A DNA stretch of 45,064 nt from Terriglobia bacterium (lineage in GTDB: Bacteria > Acidobacteriota > Terriglobia > Acidiferrales > UBA7541), in contig JAIQEV010000029.1 of the NCBI GenBank assembly GCA_020073585.1, forward strand, positions 1 to 45,064, read 5' to 3'. Positions within the stretch are counted from its first letter, which is position 1. Each line of letters opens with the position of its first letter. The notes under the pieces are model-generated. The model saw nothing but the letters and a program-made list of their open reading frames with translations, did not search any database and was not told where the DNA came from. Below, in pieces: positions 16,940 to 28,570 of this stretch. The position numbers and the translations under genes are program-made.

Positions 16940-19330
16940 CTACTGCATGGAATCGTCGAACTCTTTCATCCAGCCGCGGCTCTTGAGCACTTCCCGGGGC
17001 CGCGTGCCGTCCGGCGGGCCCACGATGCCGTCTTTCTCCATCAAGTCGATCAGACGCGCGGCACGGCCGTAGCCGATGCGCAGCCGCCGCTGCAGCGTGG
17101 AGGTCGAGGCGCGGCCCATCTCGCAGACCACCCGCACGGCATCCTGGTACAGCGCGTCGTCCACGGCCTCGCCGCCATCGCCGTCCACGTCCGCTTCGCC
17201 GGCGTCCTCGCCCTCTTCCTTGGGCGCTTCGAGGAGTTGTTCGTTGTATTTGGCTTCCGCCTGGGCGCGCCAGAAATCGCACACCGCCGTGATTTCCTCC
17301 TCCCGGACGTAGGGTCCGTGGATGCGGTGCAGGCGCGAGGAACCCGCCGGCAGGTAGAGCATGTCACCGCGGCCCAGCAGCGATTCCGAGCCGTTGGCGT
17401 CCAGGATCGTCCGCGAGTCCACCTTGCTGGCCACCCGGAAGGAGATGCGGGCAGGGAAGTTGGCTTTGATCAGACCGGTGATGACGTCCACCGACGGCCG
17501 CTGCGTGGCCAGCAGCAGGTGGATGCCCACGGCGCGGGCCATCTGCGCCAGCCGCGTGATGGACTCTTCCACGGTGTTGGTGTCCACCATCATCAGGTCG
17601 GCCAGCTCGTCGATCACGATCAGGATGTAGGGCAGCGGCTTGTGCTGGCTCTCCTCGTTGGTGTCGAAGAGGGAGAGCGATTGCCCCTTCTGGAACTGGC
17701 GGTTGTACTGGTCGATGTTGCGCACGCCGCGCTCGGCCAGCAGCGTCAGCCGCTTTTCCATCTCTTTCGTGGCATTGCGCAGCACGTTCGAGGCGACCTT
17801 CGGGTCGGTCACCACCGGCGCCAGCAGGTGCGGAATCTTCTCGTAGAGATTCAGCTCCAGCCGCTTGGGATCCACCAGGACCAGCTTGACCTCGTCCGGC
17901 GTGGACTTGTAGAGAATGGACATCAGCAGGGAGTTGATGAACACGCTCTTGCCCGTGCCGGTGGACCCTGCAATCAGCAAGTGCGGCATCTGCGACAGGT
18001 CGCTCACGCGGATGCGCCCGTGCAGGTCGCGGCCCATGGCCAGCGTCAGCCGGCTGGGCGAATTGACGAATTCCGGGGCCTCGATCACCTCGCGCAGGGC
18101 GATGGTCTGGCGGTTCACGTTGGGCACTTCGATGCCGATTGTGGACTTCCCGGGAATGCGCTCGATCAGGATCGATTCCGCCTGCAGCGCCAGGCACAGG
18201 TCGTCCGCCAGGCCGGTGATGCGGCTCACCTTGATGCCCGCCTCGGGCTTGAACTCGAAGGTGGTGACCACTGGCCCGGGGTTGATCTGCGTCACGTGGC
18301 CCTTGATGTCGAACTCCTCGCACTTCAGTTCGATGGCCCGTGCGCGCTCCTTCAGTTCGGTTTCGTCCAGTAACTCGCTGCGCTCGCCGGGCTGCAGCAG
18401 CGAAGGCGACGGCAGTTTGTAGTTGGCGCTGCCGCGGGCGATCTTCGGTTCGGCGCCGGCCTTGCGCGCCGCCGCCGGTTTGGGCTTCTCGTCATGCAGG
18501 AACAGGATGGGCGCGAGGCGCTCTTCCTTCTCCGCGGCGGCCGATTCCTCGTCGGCTTCTTCGATCTCTTCGTCCTCGTCGGCCAGATGGATCGTCTTGT
18601 GCGCGTCCTTCAGCAGCGTGGCCGCGCCCACTCCCGGCTGCGAAACGGGCGGCCGCCCCGCCGCGCGCATCGCCTCGACGCGCCGGCGCATCAGTTCCTG
18701 CTGGCGCGCCTCCCGCCAGTTCCGCCACTTGGCCTGGGCCTTCTGGATGATGCCGAGGCGTTCGACGGCGCCCACAGGGCCCGTGGGGCCGCTCACCCAG
18801 GCGTGCGCTCCGGAAAAAGAAAAGCGCGTGGTCATGAACAGCGCCGTGAGAAACAGCGCCAGCGCCACCAGATGGGCGCCTACGGCGTTGAACCCGGCGC
18901 GCAGACCGTTGGCCACCAGCGTGCCCGTGAGCCCGCCCGCCGGCACCGCCCCGCGCACTCCGGGCAGATGCCAGAGCATCAGCAGGGCGGGCAGGGAAAG
19001 CAGCAGCAGGCCGTAGCCTATCAGTTTCGCCGTCTGCGAATTCACCTCATGGCTGCGGAACCACCGCCAGCCCAGCGTACCCAGCGCCATCGGCAGCAGA
19101 AACGCCGCGAACCCCAATAACTGGAAAAGTAGGTCCGCGCTGTAGGAGCCCGCCAAGCCGATCCAGTTCCGCGCCGGATTTTCTCCCGGCGCGGATGCCG
19201 ACACGTTGAACGAGGCGTCGCGCGGGGAATAGGAAATCAACGCCAGGGCCAGCAACACGCCCAGCGTTATGCACAAAAAGCCGATCAGTTCATTGAGCCG
19301 CTTATTTCCAGTGGGTGTCAGGAAGCGCAC
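16940..19330 (-). CDS. ftsK: DNA translocase FtsK/SpoIIIE
   Basis: 796 residues from GTG 19330, chosen for GAGGAG seven bases upstream; the frame extends to 19417. It pumps chromosomal DNA through the closing division septum and activates XerCD. About four membrane segments fill the N-terminus (residues 15-180), followed by a charged linker rich in Glu and Ala, an alpha/beta motor domain with Walker A GSTGTGKSVFINS and Walker B LIVIDELADLMMV, and a C-terminal gamma winged helix (DALYQDAVRVVCEMGRAS to the end) that reads KOPS sequences. Length is normal for the SpoIIIE-like short form. It is downstream of uppP with a 53-base gap. Confidence 0.95.
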   Translation of the reverse strand: MRFLTPTGNKRLNELIGFLCITLGVLLALALISYSPRDASFNVSASAPGENPARNWIGLAGSYSADLLFQLLGFAAFLLPMALGTLGWRWFRSHEVNSQTAKLIGYGLLLLSLPALLMLWHLPGVRGAVPAGGLTGTLVANGLRAGFNAVGAHLVALALFLTALFMTTRFSFSGAHAWVSGPTGPVGAVERLGIIQKAQAKWRNWREARQQELMRRRVEAMRAAGRPPVSQPGVGAATLLKDAHKTIHLADEDEEIEEADEESAAAEKEERLAPILFLHDEKPKPAAARKAGAEPKIARGSANYKLPSPSLLQPGERSELLDETELKERARAIELKCEEFDIKGHVTQINPGPVVTTFEFKPEAGIKVSRITGLADDLCLALQAESILIERIPGKSTIGIEVPNVNRQTIALREVIEAPEFVNSPSRLTLAMGRDLHGRIRVSDLSQMPHLLIAGSTGTGKSVFINSLLMSILYKSTPDEVKLVLVDPKRLELNLYEKIPHLLAPVVTDPKVASNVLRNATKEMEKRLTLLAERGVRNIDQYNRQFQKGQSLSLFDTNEESQHKPLPYILIVIDELADLMMVDTNTVEESITRLAQMARAVGIHLLLATQRPSVDVITGLIKANFPARISFRVASKVDSRTILDANGSESLLGRGDMLYLPAGSSRLHRIHGPYVREEEITAVCDFWRAQAEAKYNEQLLEAPKEEGEDAGEADVDGDGGEAVDDALYQDAVRVVCEMGRASTSTLQRRLRIGYGRAARLIDLMEKDGIVGPPDGTRPREVLKSRGWMKEFDDSMQ

Positions 19331-24688: not shown

Positions 24689-25774
24689 CTATCCCGCCGC
24701 CGGCTGCTGCTGCGTCATGCAGTGCAGCGTGCCCAGCCCCAGCACCAGGTCGCGGCAGGGAATTCCCACCACTTCGCGCCCGGGAAAGAGCGCCGTCAGC
24801 GTGTTCAGCGCCACGCGGTCGTTGGGATCGCTGAACGTCGGCACGATCACCAGCTTGTTCGCGATGTAGAAATTCGCGTAGCTGGCAGGCAGCCGCTGCC
24901 CGTTGAAGAACACCGGCGCGGGCATGGGCAGCGTCTCCACGCGCAGCACCCGCCCGTCCTGGTCCTTCATGGTCTTGAGCAGCGCCAGATTTTCCTGCAG
25001 CGCCGCGTAATTGACGTCCGAAGGGTCCTCTTCCACGGCGGTGACCACGGTCGTGGGATTGACGAAGCGCGTCAGGTCGTCCACGTGGCCGTGCGTGTCG
25101 TCCCCGGCGATGCCGTTCTTCAGCCACAGCACGTTCGTCGCGCCCAGGTACTCCCGCAGGATCTCCTCGAGCTCTCCGCGCGTTACCCCGGGATTTCTCG
25201 CCTGCACCGGGCTCAGCAGGCACTCTTCCGTCGTCAGCAGCGTGCCGCGCCCGTTCACGTCGATGCTCCCGCCCTCCAGCACCACGCGGCGGCCCTTGTG
25301 CACCGGCTGCCAGACGCGGTGCTTCAGCCGCGCGTTGACGCGCGCCGCGGACACCGCATCCTTCTTGTAATTGTCGTACTTGGCCCAGGCGTTGAAGGAC
25401 CAGTGCGTGCAGGCCACTTCGCCCGCGGAGTTTTTCACGCAGATCGGTCCGGAATCGCGCATCCAGCCGCGGTCGGTGGGCACGCGGAAGAAATCCACGG
25501 CGTCGAGCTGGGCCCCGGACTTCTTCAGCATCGAGCGCACCCGCGCTTCCGCCGCGCGATTTTCCACCAGCAGGTAGACGCGCTCGACGCGCGAGAGATG
25601 CCGCACGATATCGGCATACACCCACGGCACGGGAGCAAATTTTCCTGGCCAATCGCTCAGCTCATGCGGCCAGCCCAGCCAGGTCGCCTCGTGGCGCTCC
25701 CATTCCGCCGACATGCGGTAGCCCAGGGAAAACGGAGTACCTTGCGCGGGGCCCGGCTTGTTCTTGGCGCTCAT
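24689..25774 (-). CDS. aguA: Agmatine deiminase
   Basis: 361 residues from ATG 25774. It converts agmatine and water to N-carbamoylputrescine and ammonia. Family blocks are seen throughout: YRMSAEWERHEATWLGWP at the start, RDSGPICVKN, LEGGSIDVNGRGTLLTTEE, DTHGHVDDLTRFV, and the catalytic Cys in GLGTLHCMTQQ close to the C-terminus (commonly GGGNIHCITQQ). The active-site Asp, His and Cys are retained. The start overlaps the stop of the preceding aguB in an ATGA (25774-25771), which implies translational coupling. The frame continues upstream through aguB, but that part is a shadow. Confidence 0.94.
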   Translation of the reverse strand: MSAKNKPGPAQGTPFSLGYRMSAEWERHEATWLGWPHELSDWPGKFAPVPWVYADIVRHLSRVERVYLLVENRAAEARVRSMLKKSGAQLDAVDFFRVPTDRGWMRDSGPICVKNSAGEVACTHWSFNAWAKYDNYKKDAVSAARVNARLKHRVWQPVHKGRRVVLEGGSIDVNGRGTLLTTEECLLSPVQARNPGVTRGELEEILREYLGATNVLWLKNGIAGDDTHGHVDDLTRFVNPTTVVTAVEEDPSDVNYAALQENLALLKTMKDQDGRVLRVETLPMPAPVFFNGQRLPASYANFYIANKLVIVPTFSDPNDRVALNTLTALFPGREVVGIPCRDLVLGLGTLHCMTQQQPAAG

Positions 25775-26652
25775 TCGCCCAGCCACCGCTGCAGGATCGG
25801 CTGGTAGGCGTCGATGCGCCGGTCGCGCAGAAACGGCCAGTTGCGCCGGGTCTCCTCGCAACGCTGCGGATCGCATTCCACCACGAGAATCTCTTCCTGG
25901 CCGCTGGAAGCCTGCGCCAGCACCTGTCCTAAGGGATCGGCCACGAACGAATTGCCCCAGAACTCCAGCCCGCTTTCCGGCGTGCCCTCGTAGCCCGTGC
26001 GGTTCACCGCGGCGACGTACACCCCGTTGGCAATGGCGTGCGCGCGCTGAATGGTGCGCCATGCGTCCAGTTGCGCCGCGCCGTGCTGCGCTTTCTCCGC
26101 CGGGTGCCAGCCGATGGCCGTGGGGTAGAAGAGGACGCTCGCGCCGCCGAGGCTCGCCAGGCGCGCCGCTTCCGGATACCACTGGTCCCAGCAGATCAGC
26201 ACGCCGATGCGTCCGCGCGCCGTATCGAAATTCACGAAGCCCAGATCGCCCGGAGTAAAATAAAATTTCTCGTAGTACAGCGGATCGTCGGGGATGTGCA
26301 TCTTGCGGTACTTGCCGAGCAGCGCTCCGTCGCTGTTCATCACCACCGCGGTGTTGTGGTAGACCCCGGCGGCGCGTCGCTCGAAGAGCGACCCGATTAC
26401 CACCACGCCGAGCTCCTTCGCGATTTTTCCCAGCGCGCCGCTCGAGGGGCCGGGAATCGGCTCCGCCAGCGCAAACAGCTCCGCGTTTTCTTCGCGGCAG
26501 AAATACTGCGAGCGGAACAGTTCCTGCAGGCAGATGATCTGCGCGCCCTTCTGCGCGGCTTCCCGGATCTTCCCGAGGGCCTTGGCGAGGTTGGCGGCCG
26601 GGTCGGGGCCGCAGGTCATTTGGATCAGCCCGATTTTGAATTTTTCCGACAT
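25771..26652 (-). CDS. aguB: N-carbamoylputrescine amidohydrolase
   Basis: 293 residues from ATG 26652 (MSEKFKIGLIQMTCGPD); upstream in-frame residues lack family similarity. It is a nitrilase-superfamily enzyme that splits N-carbamoylputrescine into putrescine, CO2 and ammonia. The Glu-Lys-Cys triad is visible: ICLQELFRSQYFC (Glu), GKYRKMHIPDD (Lys) and VLICWDQWYPEAAR (Cys). The block FYFTPGDLGF is also typical of AguB. Coupled to aguA by a 4-base overlap, it completes the agmatine-to-putrescine route. It is transcribed divergently from the deoxyhypusine-synthase-family gene. Confidence 0.94.
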   Translation of the reverse strand: MSEKFKIGLIQMTCGPDPAANLAKALGKIREAAQKGAQIICLQELFRSQYFCREENAELFALAEPIPGPSSGALGKIAKELGVVVIGSLFERRAAGVYHNTAVVMNSDGALLGKYRKMHIPDDPLYYEKFYFTPGDLGFVNFDTARGRIGVLICWDQWYPEAARLASLGGASVLFYPTAIGWHPAEKAQHGAAQLDAWRTIQRAHAIANGVYVAAVNRTGYEGTPESGLEFWGNSFVADPLGQVLAQASSGQEEILVVECDPQRCEETRRNWPFLRDRRIDAYQPILQRWLGE

Positions 26653-26853
26653 GCGGGAATCATACATCATCTTTTCCACGGCAAAAGCCTTCTTCGGAAA
26701 GTTCGGCGAAAATTGACGGAAACGACTTTCCCTCTTCCTTTGCGGGCGAGTTTGTACTATCAATCGTTACGCGTTTATGATGCCCTTCGGGTTTCCGCCT
26801 GTCCGGCAGGGAATTCGCAAGCGGCAATCATCCTGGAGATTTGAGGAGACGGA

Positions 26854-27927
26854 ATGGCGAAATCGAAAAAGACGGTGACCGGGCGGGTGCTGCATGACCC
26901 GGTGAAAGACAAGCTGCGCCCCATTTTTCCGCTCGACCTGTCGAAGTGCCGCACCATCGACGCGCTGGTGCGCGCCATGGGCGACACGGCCTTCACCGGA
27001 CGCCAGGTCGGCGATGCCGCCGACATCCTCGAAGCCATGGCCCGCGACAAGGACTGTTTCGTCGTCCTGACCCTTTCCGGCGCGCTCACCGTCGGCAAGA
27101 TGGGCCTCATCTTCTGCGACCTGATCGAATCCGGCGTCGTCAACGCCATCGTTTCCACCGGCGCGCTCATGGCCCACGGCCTCGTCGAGGCCACCGGCCA
27201 CTCGCACTTCCGTTACAGCAAGAACATGGACGACAAGGCGCTCTTCCACGCCGGCTACAACCGCGTTTACGACTCTCTCGAGCCGGAAGTGAACCTGGAC
27301 CACGTGGAAGAGGTCATGGACCGCATCCTCGATCAGTGGGACGCGGACGAAGTCGTGGCCAGCCACAAGCTGCACCGCAAGATCGGCGAATTCCTCGTGA
27401 AGCATTCCAAGGGCCGCGGCATCCTGAAGTCGGCTTACCAGCACAACGTCCCGGTCTTCGTGCCGGCTTTCACCGATTCCGAGCTGGGCATCGATTTCGC
27501 CCTGCACAAGTTCGCCCGGCAGAAGCAGCAGCGGCCGCTGCTGCGCTTCGATCCCTTCGAGGATTTCGAAAAGTTCGCCGACACCATGCTGGCCACCAAG
27601 CGCATGGGCATCTTCACCATCGGCGGCGGCGTGCCGCGCAACTGGTCGCAGCAGTTCGGCGTTTACGCGGAGTTGCTGGCCCGCCGCGGCTACAGGAAGA
27701 TGCCGCTCAAGCGCTACAACTACGGTCTGCGCATCTGCCCCGAGCCGGACTTCTGGGGCGGCCTCAGCGGCAGCACCTACACGGAAGCCGTCTCCTGGGG
27801 CAAGTTCGTTCCGCCGGAAGAGGGGGGCCGCTTCGCCGAGGTCTTTGATGACGCCACGGTGGCCCTGCCGCTGGTCGTCGGCGCGGTCCTGGAGCGCATC
27901 GGCTACTTCAAGAAGAAGAAAAGGTAA
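26854..27927 (+). CDS. Deoxyhypusine synthase family protein (probable homospermidine/polyamine synthase)
   Basis: 357 residues. The deoxyhypusine synthase family uses NAD to oxidise a polyamine, then transfers the aminobutyl group to an enzyme lysine and on to an acceptor. The SGALTVGKMG and STGALMAHGLVEA blocks, FTIGGGVPRNW and the lysine motif EAVSWGKFVP (Lys317, equal to human Lys329) are conserved. Bacteria lack eIF5A, so the acceptor should be a small amine such as putrescine, giving homospermidine; a few family members make other triamines. Its neighbours aguA, aguB and pyruvoyl arginine decarboxylase supply putrescine, which strongly supports this. Divergent from aguB and convergent with the decarboxylase gene. 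Confidence 0.88.
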   Translation: MAKSKKTVTGRVLHDPVKDKLRPIFPLDLSKCRTIDALVRAMGDTAFTGRQVGDAADILEAMARDKDCFVVLTLSGALTVGKMGLIFCDLIESGVVNAIVSTGALMAHGLVEATGHSHFRYSKNMDDKALFHAGYNRVYDSLEPEVNLDHVEEVMDRILDQWDADEVVASHKLHRKIGEFLVKHSKGRGILKSAYQHNVPVFVPAFTDSELGIDFALHKFARQKQQRPLLRFDPFEDFEKFADTMLATKRMGIFTIGGGVPRNWSQQFGVYAELLARRGYRKMPLKRYNYGLRICPEPDFWGGLSGSTYTEAVSWGKFVPPEEGGRFAEVFDDATVALPLVVGAVLERIGYFKKKKR

Positions 27928-27960
27928 CTCGTTCGCGGGAGCAGGGAAGCGGCCGCAAAC

Positions 27961-28000
27961 AAAAAGGGCCGCCCTCGCGGGAGGGCGGCCTGAACTTTTT
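27961..28000. terminator. Bidirectional intrinsic terminator
   Basis: GGCCGCCCTC (27967-27976) and GAGGGCGGCC (27981-27990) form a 10-bp stem with a GCGG loop. It has an A-run before (27961-27965, giving CTTTTTG on the minus strand) and a CTTTTT run after on the plus strand. It sits between two convergent genes and should end both. Confidence 0.88.
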
Positions 28001-28012
28001 GCGGGTACGCGG

Positions 28013-28570
28013 TTAGTCGTCTTCGCCGATGAGGATGGCCGCGCCGAGCACCGTGGTCCACAGTCCGCGCTTGTCGCCCACGGCGGACTGCGTGACGTTC
28101 AGCGTGCGCACGATCTTGTTCGAAATCCGGTAGACCTCTTTTTTCTCGTCCCACGACAGGTCCGGATCGAACTCCACGTTCAGCGTGGTCGCCAGCATTT
28201 CCGCCGCGAGTTCCTCGGCGTACTCCCCGGCGACTTCTTCGGTCTCCCCGAAGGAATGGTGCTCGGAAAGATAGCCGTACATCGATTTGTCGGCGGGCAG
28301 CGCCAGGCCGATGCTGGCGGCGATCAGCCGATGTGGCTCCTTGGTCGAATTCTCGCTGATGACCGTGAAGGCCACCTGGCCCGGCTTGATGTGCTTCAGC
28401 CCCTCGCTGCGCGAGATCAGCTTGCAGTTCGGAGGAAAGATGGAGGAGACGCGCACGATGTTGCATGCCGCGATCCCCGCGTTGCGAAGTGCGAGCTCGA
28501 AGCTCGAAAGTCTTTCGCGATGTTTGCCCACGCCTTTGGTGAGGAAGATCTTTTTTGCGACGAACGCCAT
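28013..28570 (-). CDS. Pyruvoyl-dependent arginine decarboxylase
   Basis: 185 residues. The proenzyme self-cleaves at a Ser-Ser pair to give a beta chain and an alpha chain with an N-terminal pyruvoyl group; the product decarboxylates arginine to agmatine. The cleavage site is RVSSIFPP, between Ser42 and Ser43. The blocks [20 protein letters not shown] and [14 protein letters not shown] match the family, including the Glu near the pyruvoyl. The enzyme type is best known from archaea and chlamydiae, where it replaces PLP-dependent SpeA. Its product is the substrate of aguA 2.2 kb away. Its promoter lies at 28634-28662. Confidence 0.92.

What the first reader, a model, noticed from the sequence alone, without database searches (positions are those of the whole stretch)
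24689..28570. Compact arginine-to-polyamine module with archaeal/eukaryotic-style enzymes
Pyruvoyl arginine decarboxylase, agmatine deiminase, carbamoylputrescine amidase and a deoxyhypusine-synthase-family protein lie within 3.9 kb. Arginine can go to agmatine, N-carbamoylputrescine and putrescine, and then probably to homospermidine, without S-adenosylmethionine decarboxylase, PLP-dependent SpeA or SpeE. The layout, aguBA coupled and divergent from the synthase, which converges on the decarboxylase, may be a mobile unit of pathway.
Basis: partly seen in the sequence, partly recalled or inferred. Interest (0 to 1): 0.72.

Follow-up and report, generated by a model that had tools for sequence, protein, structure and literature searches.

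The report
Arginine-to-homospermidine gene cluster in soil Acidobacteria
A soil bacterium carries, side by side, four genes that probably turn arginine into the polyamine homospermidine by an unusual enzyme set; the pathway type is known, but the last enzyme belongs to an untested branch of its family, and the set looks like an inherited part of the chromosome rather than a mobile unit.

Summary
AguA (24689-25774 -), AguB (25771-26652 -, overlapping AguA by 4 bases), a deoxyhypusine-synthase-family (DHS) protein (26854-27927 +) and a pyruvoyl arginine decarboxylase, PvlArgDC (28013-28570 -), are intact and keep known catalytic residues. The genome (about 97% complete, Acidobacteriota, near subdivision 2 and 'Ca. 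Acidiferrum') shows no SpeD, SpeE, or PLP arginine/ornithine decarboxylase. Best reading: arginine > agmatine > N-carbamoylputrescine > putrescine > homospermidine. The DHS protein lies in a distinct clade below every NCBIfam DHS cut-off, both SpeY-type and caldomycin-synthase models included, so its substrate is inferred; it lacks the Ser and Phe noted at the agmatine site of Thermus caldomycin synthase. 'Mobile unit' is not supported: gene order and strand are kept in 30 of 32 other family genomes that have the DHS gene, mostly with the same outer neighbours, and no copy of the block was found on plasmids or phages. A new result: in sister lineages agmatinase (speB) occupies the aguBA slot. 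Of 80 named loci 45 hold aguBA there, 4 aguB alone, 19 speB, 12 neither, none both. Clusters of other arginine decarboxylases with AguBA or SpeB and SpeY are published, so this is a new variant of a known kind.

The parts
24689..25774 (-). AguA-like agmatine deiminase, 361 aa
   Evidence: PF04371 390 bits; TIGR03380 289 bits, below its cut-off 381.8; aligns to 1xkn with the Cys of HCMTQQ / HCVTHE in register (that this Cys is catalytic is recalled); translation
25771..26652 (-). AguB-like N-carbamoylputrescine amidase, 293 aa; stop overlaps AguA start (ATGA)
   Evidence: PF00795 214 bits; TIGR03381 305 bits, below cut-off 410; motifs LQEL, YRKMH and CWDQWYPEA (Glu, Lys, Cys; roles recalled) in register with 6mg6
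26653..26853 (.). divergent intergenic region, 201 bp, between aguB and the DHS-family gene
   Evidence: no sigma-70-like site found by the simple scan
26854..27927 (+). DHS-family protein, 357 aa, probable homospermidine synthase; K317 matches human catalytic Lys329
   Evidence: PF01916 264 bits; below all NCBIfam DHS cut-offs; K317, W315, E311, D208 conserved; AlphaFold model pLDDT 74, pTM 0.77, Z about 26 to solved DHS structures
27966..27991 (.). terminator-like hairpin with T-runs on both strands between the convergent genes
   Evidence: by a simple scan similar in few relatives, so taken as local
28013..28570 (-). pyruvoyl-dependent arginine decarboxylase (PvlArgDC), 185 aa; probable self-cleavage site S42-S43
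   Evidence: PF01862 200 bits; TIGR00286 124 bits over cut-off 107; S43 aligns with residue 53 of 1n2m (role of that residue recalled)

Best explanation
A chromosomal, vertically inherited polyamine locus. PvlArgDC cuts itself to make a pyruvoyl cofactor and decarboxylates arginine to agmatine. AguA deiminates agmatine to N-carbamoylputrescine and AguB hydrolyses that to putrescine. The DHS-family protein then moves an aminobutyl group from one putrescine to a second one, through NAD-dependent dehydrogenation and an imine on K317, giving sym-homospermidine without S-adenosylmethionine or PLP. Shown: gene families, residues expected for catalysis, gene order and its conservation, no hit for the spermidine and ornithine-decarboxylase families searched in the assembly. 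Inferred: every reaction in the cell, and above all that putrescine and not agmatine is the substrate of the DHS-family protein.
For: Families and residues. No SpeD (7), SpeE (11), PF01276; only LysA in PF02784, so no carboxyspermidine decarboxylase of that fold either. Block kept in the family. In sister lineages agmatinase stands in the aguBA slot: 45 aguBA, 4 aguB alone, 19 speB, 12 neither, 0 both, of 80 loci; three order-level relatives without any AguA hit (G037, G038, G039) have an arginase-family gene there, which in the two scored (G037, G038) passes the TIGR01230 agmatinase cut-off. Two unrelated ways to turn agmatine into putrescine exchanging at one slot point to putrescine as the needed product. 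The position of Ser67 of caldomycin synthase is Ala in 27 of 27 aligned sequences of the window clade. Published clusters of the same logic make homospermidine (PMC9992855, PMC10407285; passages read).
Against: No activity data. The DHS protein scores 158 against the SpeY-type model (cut-off 450) and 223 against the caldomycin-synthase model (cut-off 500), so by raw score it is nearer the agmatine-using model, though below both. Ala at the Ser67 position is common to most DHS-like clades I aligned, so it speaks only against the caldomycin-synthase type, not for SpeY. The slot exchange also fits hydrolysis of a coupled agmatine product, since Thermus TtSpeBap, an agmatinase-like ureohydrolase, acts on caldomycin (PMC10981699). 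AguA and AguB are below their NCBIfam cut-offs; for AguB no match in any of 61 genomes, host included, passes. 12 of 80 loci have neither enzyme in the slot, 9 of them with at least 2 kb of flank. Carboxynorspermidine-synthase likeness of two host proteins is weak (30 bits, cut-off 800) but not nil.
Confidence: 0.7

Rival explanations
1. [quoted passage not shown] AguA and AguB (in sister lineages SpeB) then strip the guanidine groups to give homospermidine.
For: CdmS is a DHS homologue that used agmatine only (PMC10981699). The DHS gene converges with the arginine decarboxylase gene; in 9 of 80 loci with at least 2 kb of flank the slot next to it holds neither aguBA nor speB. By raw score the window protein is nearer the CdmS model than the SpeY-type model.
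Against: Positions of CdmS Ser67 and Phe204 are Ala and Ile in the window protein (in the clade Ile 17, Leu 9, Asn 1 of 27), whereas the 5 sequences of the CdmS-model type that I aligned have Ser and Phe; the tree places the clade apart from them. No AguA or AguB is known to me to act on caldomycin (recalled; not searched).
Confidence: 0.17
2. The DHS-family protein has another acceptor or donor (for example N-carbamoylputrescine, imported spermidine, or a protein lysine), and the cluster yields putrescine plus an unknown aminobutylated product.
For: The clade is uncharacterised as far as my searches show and outside all curated DHS models. DHS enzymes are promiscuous (PMC7780104, abstract in the listing).
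Against: The bacterial DHS homologues in the papers I read make homospermidine or its diamidino precursor. No eIF5A is expected in a bacterium (recalled; not searched).
Confidence: 0.1
3. The four genes are a mobile pathway cassette recently acquired as a unit.
For: One congener (G034, 95% complete) has no PvlArgDC and no AguA hit, and its only DHS-family hit is a weak one. PvlArgDC has one plasmid relative, at 48% identity.
Against: Flanking genes mostly fixed in the family: RNase J within the stretch fetched in 29 of 32 loci, GAF in 28, an SdhA in 26, the rest mostly at contig ends; no clear GC shift over the block; of 14 plasmids with a match none covers 80% of the block and the ten listed cover at most 8%, and no phage matches; DHS protein alone.
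Confidence: 0.03

Closest known systems
ADC - SpeY - NCPAH - AIH cluster of Ca. Pelagibacter and Ca. Fonsibacter (PMC9992855, Fig. 2 legend read in a passage)
   Same: Same logic and same other three enzyme kinds: agmatine deiminase, carbamoylputrescine amidase, DHS homologue as homospermidine synthase
   Different: Decarboxylase there is an alanine-racemase-fold enzyme related to ornithine decarboxylase; here it is the PvlArgDC family. Sequence kinship of the two DHS proteins not tested.
SpeD-derived pyruvoyl arginine decarboxylase (SpeDA) clusters with speY and speB or aguA-aguB (PMC10407285, passages read)
   Same: Pyruvoyl decarboxylase, speY, and speB or aguA-aguB; lower dependence on PLP and AdoMet is discussed there
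   Different: SpeDA comes from the AdoMet decarboxylase family (PF02675); no hit of that family in the host, PF01862 takes its place
Caldomycin synthase CdmS, Thermus thermophilus TTHA1570 (PMC10981699, parts 1-2 of 4 read)
   Same: DHS homologue in homospermidine synthesis; catalytic Lys, Glu293 and Leu286 positions shared
   Different: Used agmatine only; Ser67 and Phe204 positions are Ala and Ile here; window protein 223 bits against a model cut-off of 500
SpeY-type, NF001980 homospermidine biosynthesis protein
   Same: Fold family, catalytic Lys, Ala at the Ser67 position
   Different: 158 bits against cut-off 450; separate branch in the tree

Membership tests
Deoxyhypusine synthase family (PF01916) | Score over the family cut-off, catalytic Lys in SWGK | tested here: met
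   264 bits against 27; K317 in register with human K329; Z about 26 to solved DHS
True deoxyhypusine synthase | Asp243 and Asp316 of human DHS at the spermidine site | tested here: not met
   Positions are Ile213 and Leu304. Archaeal DHS 8put also has Leu at the second position, so this is a weak test.
True deoxyhypusine synthase | Modifies eIF5A / aIF5A | not tested
   eIF5A not searched in the genome
SpeY-type (NF001980) | Equivalog score cut-off 450 bits | tested here: not met
   158 bits
SpeY | Makes homospermidine from putrescine | not testable with these tools
   needs enzyme assay
Caldomycin synthase (NF002699) | Equivalog score cut-off 500 bits | tested here: not met
   223 bits
Caldomycin synthase | Ser67 (proposed to bind the guanidine) and Phe204 | tested here: not met
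   Ala77 and Ile213; the role of Ser67 comes from a docking model in PMC10981699
Pyruvoyl arginine decarboxylase (TIGR00286, PF01862) | Score over cut-off; Ser-Ser self-cleavage site | tested here: met
   124 against 107 bits; S43 at 1n2m residue 53. It is just below NF009064 (195 against 207).
AguA agmatine deiminase (TIGR03380) | Equivalog cut-off 381.8 bits | tested here: not met
   289 bits; over PF04371
AguA agmatine deiminase | Catalytic Cys near the C-terminus | tested here: met
   aligned with 1xkn
AguB (TIGR03381) | Equivalog cut-off 410 bits | tested here: not met
   305 bits; the cut-off is met in 0 of 61 genomes and in 2 of 14 control genomes
Mobile genetic element | Variable location or presence on mobile replicons | tested here: not met
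   fixed place; whole block; DHS protein; PvlArgDC on plasmids: one at 48%. AguA and AguB proteins were not searched alone.

The most novel reading that the evidence does not exclude
The acidobacterial DHS clade couples agmatine (or N-carbamoylputrescine) directly, and AguA plus AguB act afterwards on the guanidino-polyamine, so that the textbook agmatine-to-putrescine pair here works on a triamine precursor.
Probability: 0.15. Interest if true: 0.6.

Novelty: new variant of a known kind. Interest (0 to 1): 0.38.

Why it matters
It would give a large, mostly uncultured soil group a defined polyamine pathway that needs neither AdoMet nor PLP, and it names a DHS subfamily whose substrate can be tested directly. 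The exchange of aguBA for speB at one chromosomal slot is a natural experiment on which product the locus must deliver.

Tried and rejected
Mobile-unit reading: rejected by synteny and by searches of the whole block (14 plasmids match, none over 80% of the block, the ten listed at most 8% of it, all in the stretch of aguB and its neighbourhood; phages none), of the DHS protein and of PvlArgDC in plasmids (one, 48%).

SpeD in the genus as a refutation: SpeD-family hits occur in 15 of 61 genomes, not in the host. In the 4 loci opened (L211-L214) I recognised no SpeE-like gene next to it by eye, and the neighbours are proteins of another kind; I did not scan those neighbours with a family library.

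Second DHS hit of the host (contig C61): GSU2086 family (390 bits, cut-off 250), far below the DHS models. PF03435 hits of the host as homospermidine synthase or carboxyspermidine dehydrogenase: the best two of six give at most 31 bits to carboxynorspermidine synthase (cut-off 800), the third has DUF5938; the other three were judged by eye only. No homospermidine-synthase model was searched by name.

NCBIfam name as a guide to substrate: not relied on, since NF002699 also takes a Sphingomonas plasmid DHS that lies beside a PLP-dependent enzyme of the decarboxylase type.

Shared terminator as a conserved part: a simple hairpin scan passes in 6 of 38 short DHS-PvlArgDC gaps (window included), with T-runs on both sides in 2; shuffled controls 15 and 1 of 760. 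The scan misses L122, whose stem takes in its own T-runs.

Active-site positions: a first try by counting residues put the Phe204 column one residue off; corrected.

Fold search shows 50 entries, 49 of them DHS and one AgrE (6lrf); absence of others means nothing. The structure model is middling (pLDDT 74).

Papers: the listings show no paper on a PvlArgDC plus DHS cluster in Acidobacteriota; the library holds open-licence papers only and some listings were capped. Read: PMC10981699 parts 1-2 of 4; passages of PMC9992855, PMC10407285, PMC8503589; the rest only as search listings.
Full report
What is there. The window is the whole of contig C93 of a 4.03 Mb, 113-contig genome, 96.7% complete. 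The four genes are intact: aguA 24689-25774 (-), aguB 25771-26652 (-), a DHS-family gene 26854-27927 (+), and PvlArgDC 28013-28570 (-). aguB and aguA overlap by four bases. The DHS gene is divergent from aguB and convergent with PvlArgDC, with a terminator-like hairpin between the last two. Expected catalytic residues are in place: S43 of PvlArgDC at residue 53 of 1n2m; AguA Cys; AguB Glu/Lys/Cys motifs; DHS K317, W315 and E311 at human K329, W327 and E323 (human numbers counted by me on the alignment). The roles of the PvlArgDC, AguA and AguB residues are recalled.

Taxon. The 80 best loci of a scan of GTDB contigs with the DHS alignment carry Acidobacteriota titles (gp2 and gp1, 'Candidatus Acidiferrum typicum', Acidiferrales, Terriglobia, Acidobacteriaceae and the like), except two labels, Betaproteobacteria (L142) and Bacillota (L170); 415 stretches encode a relative, only the best 80 were kept. 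That the host is itself near subdivision 2 is inferred from the titles of the closest loci.

Rest of the pathway in the host. No SpeD, no SpeE, no PF01276 decarboxylase; the single PF02784 protein is LysA (434 bits, cut-off 298), so no PLP arginine or ornithine decarboxylase of these families and no carboxyspermidine decarboxylase of that fold. The host also has an agmatinase-like protein (210 bits, TIGR01230 cut-off 174) and an arginase (321, cut-off 228) on other contigs, so AguBA need not be its only route from agmatine. A gene in the missing 3% cannot be excluded.

Conservation. Of 61 genomes, host included, 56 have a PF01916 match, 47 PvlArgDC and 51 PF04371. In the family of the host, 32 of 36 other genomes have the DHS gene; in 30 of the 32 all four genes keep order and strand. 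In the two others PvlArgDC is at the edge of another contig: L059, where the contig end cuts the DHS gene, and L050, where the contig ends 2.5 kb past it. In G007 the missing DHS would fall between two contig ends; G021 and G029 are 73-74% complete. G034 (95% complete) has no PvlArgDC or AguA hit and one weak PF01916 hit (21 bits, 28.3 with its neighbours in the frame, cut-off 27), like the host hit that is GSU2086. Outer neighbours are mostly kept: of the 32 stretches fetched, RNase J lies in 29, the small membrane protein in 31, GAF in 28, an SdhA in 26 (some only about 37% alike); most absences are at contig ends, but L053 lacks RNase J without one. Insertions of unrelated genes, up to about 4 kb, occur between DHS and PvlArgDC. 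Within the genus PvlArgDC is 94-100% identical to that of the window (median 97), against 81-96 for DHS, 70-95 for AguA and 64-94 for AguB.

A swap at one slot. In order-level relatives G037, G038 and G039, which have no PF04371 hit, an arginase-family gene lies where aguBA would be, divergent from the DHS gene; those of G037 and G038 pass the agmatinase model (G039 not scored). In the 80 named loci the slot holds aguB+aguA in 45, aguB alone in 4 (three of these with under 2 kb of flank), an agmatinase related to that of G037 in 19, neither in 12 (9 with at least 2 kb of flank), and never both; PvlArgDC is convergent with DHS in 70 of 80, and of the other 10 six have under 6 kb of flank. The agmatinase was sought with one query at E 1e-10. 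This is the strongest hint that the locus must convert agmatine to putrescine, though the same swap would fit hydrolysis of a coupled agmatine product.

Which DHS. The window protein is below every NCBIfam DHS model it matches: PRK00805 236 of 434, caldomycin synthase 223 of 500, PRK02301 219 of 364, TIGR00321 196 of 304, SpeY-type 158 of 450, PRK01221 127 of 350, PRK03971 96 of 380. Other members of the class pass the SpeY-type model (557 and 465) or the caldomycin-synthase model (607). In the tree the window clade (27 sequences) is separate from both (FastTree, midpoint root; its deep order is not to be trusted). At the position of CdmS Ser67 it has Ala in 27 of 27; at Phe204 Ile in 17, Leu in 9, Asn in 1. 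The five CdmS-type sequences have Ser and Phe, the six SpeY-type ones Ala and Met. Three further sequences near PRK00805 (L075, L079, L091) have Ala and Ile, and L040, L078, L081 have Ala and Asn, so Ala is the common state. Of these types the models were run on L083 and L080 (SpeY-type) and on L084, L202 and L203 (CdmS-type); L074, L082, L087, L089 and L077, L090 were assigned by their place in the tree. I located Ser67 and Phe204 by motif, not with the Thermus sequence, which I did not have. A model (pLDDT 74, pTM 0.77; 22 sequences) matches solved DHS structures at Z about 26.

Known ground. Clusters of an arginine decarboxylase, SpeB or AguA/AguB, and a DHS homologue that makes homospermidine are published: Pelagibacter with an alanine-racemase-fold enzyme (PMC9992855), and several bacteria and archaea with a SpeD-derived pyruvoyl enzyme, one with a fused aguA-aguB (PMC10407285). 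Caldomycin synthase shows a DHS homologue that joins two agmatines (PMC10981699). What seems new here is the combination with PvlArgDC, a distinct DHS clade, its fixed place in the chromosome and the aguBA/speB exchange; the paper searches named under Tried and rejected listed nothing on it, in an open-licence library.

Verdict. A real pathway locus, ordinary in kind but interesting: likely arginine to homospermidine, vertically inherited; the last step is a good enzymology question.

Noticed in passing
L211-L214 (congeners and G043): SpeD-family genes in 15 of 61 genomes; in the four opened they sit beside a roughly 330-360 aa protein with a C-terminal zinc-ribbon-like motif and, in three, a second zinc-ribbon-like protein, not beside a recognisable SpeE, so perhaps not polyamine genes.
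   Followed up: partly
L002, host contig C61: A GSU2086-family protein with weak DHS likeness (390 bits to NF052581) in the host; similar weak PF01916 hits in several relatives.
   Followed up: no
28013-28570: PvlArgDC is nearly unchanged across the genus (94-100% identity), more than its pathway partners.
   Followed up: no
481-674: Lysine riboswitch on the - strand, 62 bits, close to the contig end.
   Followed up: no
854-2080: Transposase-like protein with HTH_38 and integrase core domains.
   Followed up: no
18047-18142: ARAGORN calls a tRNA-Ser on the + strand that Rfam does not report at its gathering score; probably false.
   Followed up: partly
L203:4491-6960: Sphingomonas plasmid DHS homologue that passes the caldomycin-synthase model yet follows a type III PLP-dependent enzyme near an exosortase gene; the model name may claim too much about substrate.
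   Followed up: partly
L142, L170: Records labelled Betaproteobacteria and Bacillota carry the acidobacterial DHS-PvlArgDC block with its neighbours; labels probably wrong.
   Followed up: no
L040, L078, L081: A further DHS-like clade in the class with Tyr and Asp at positions that are Leu and Asn in the other bacterial ones aligned, apart from one Cys; the one scanned (L081) is below all models.
   Followed up: no
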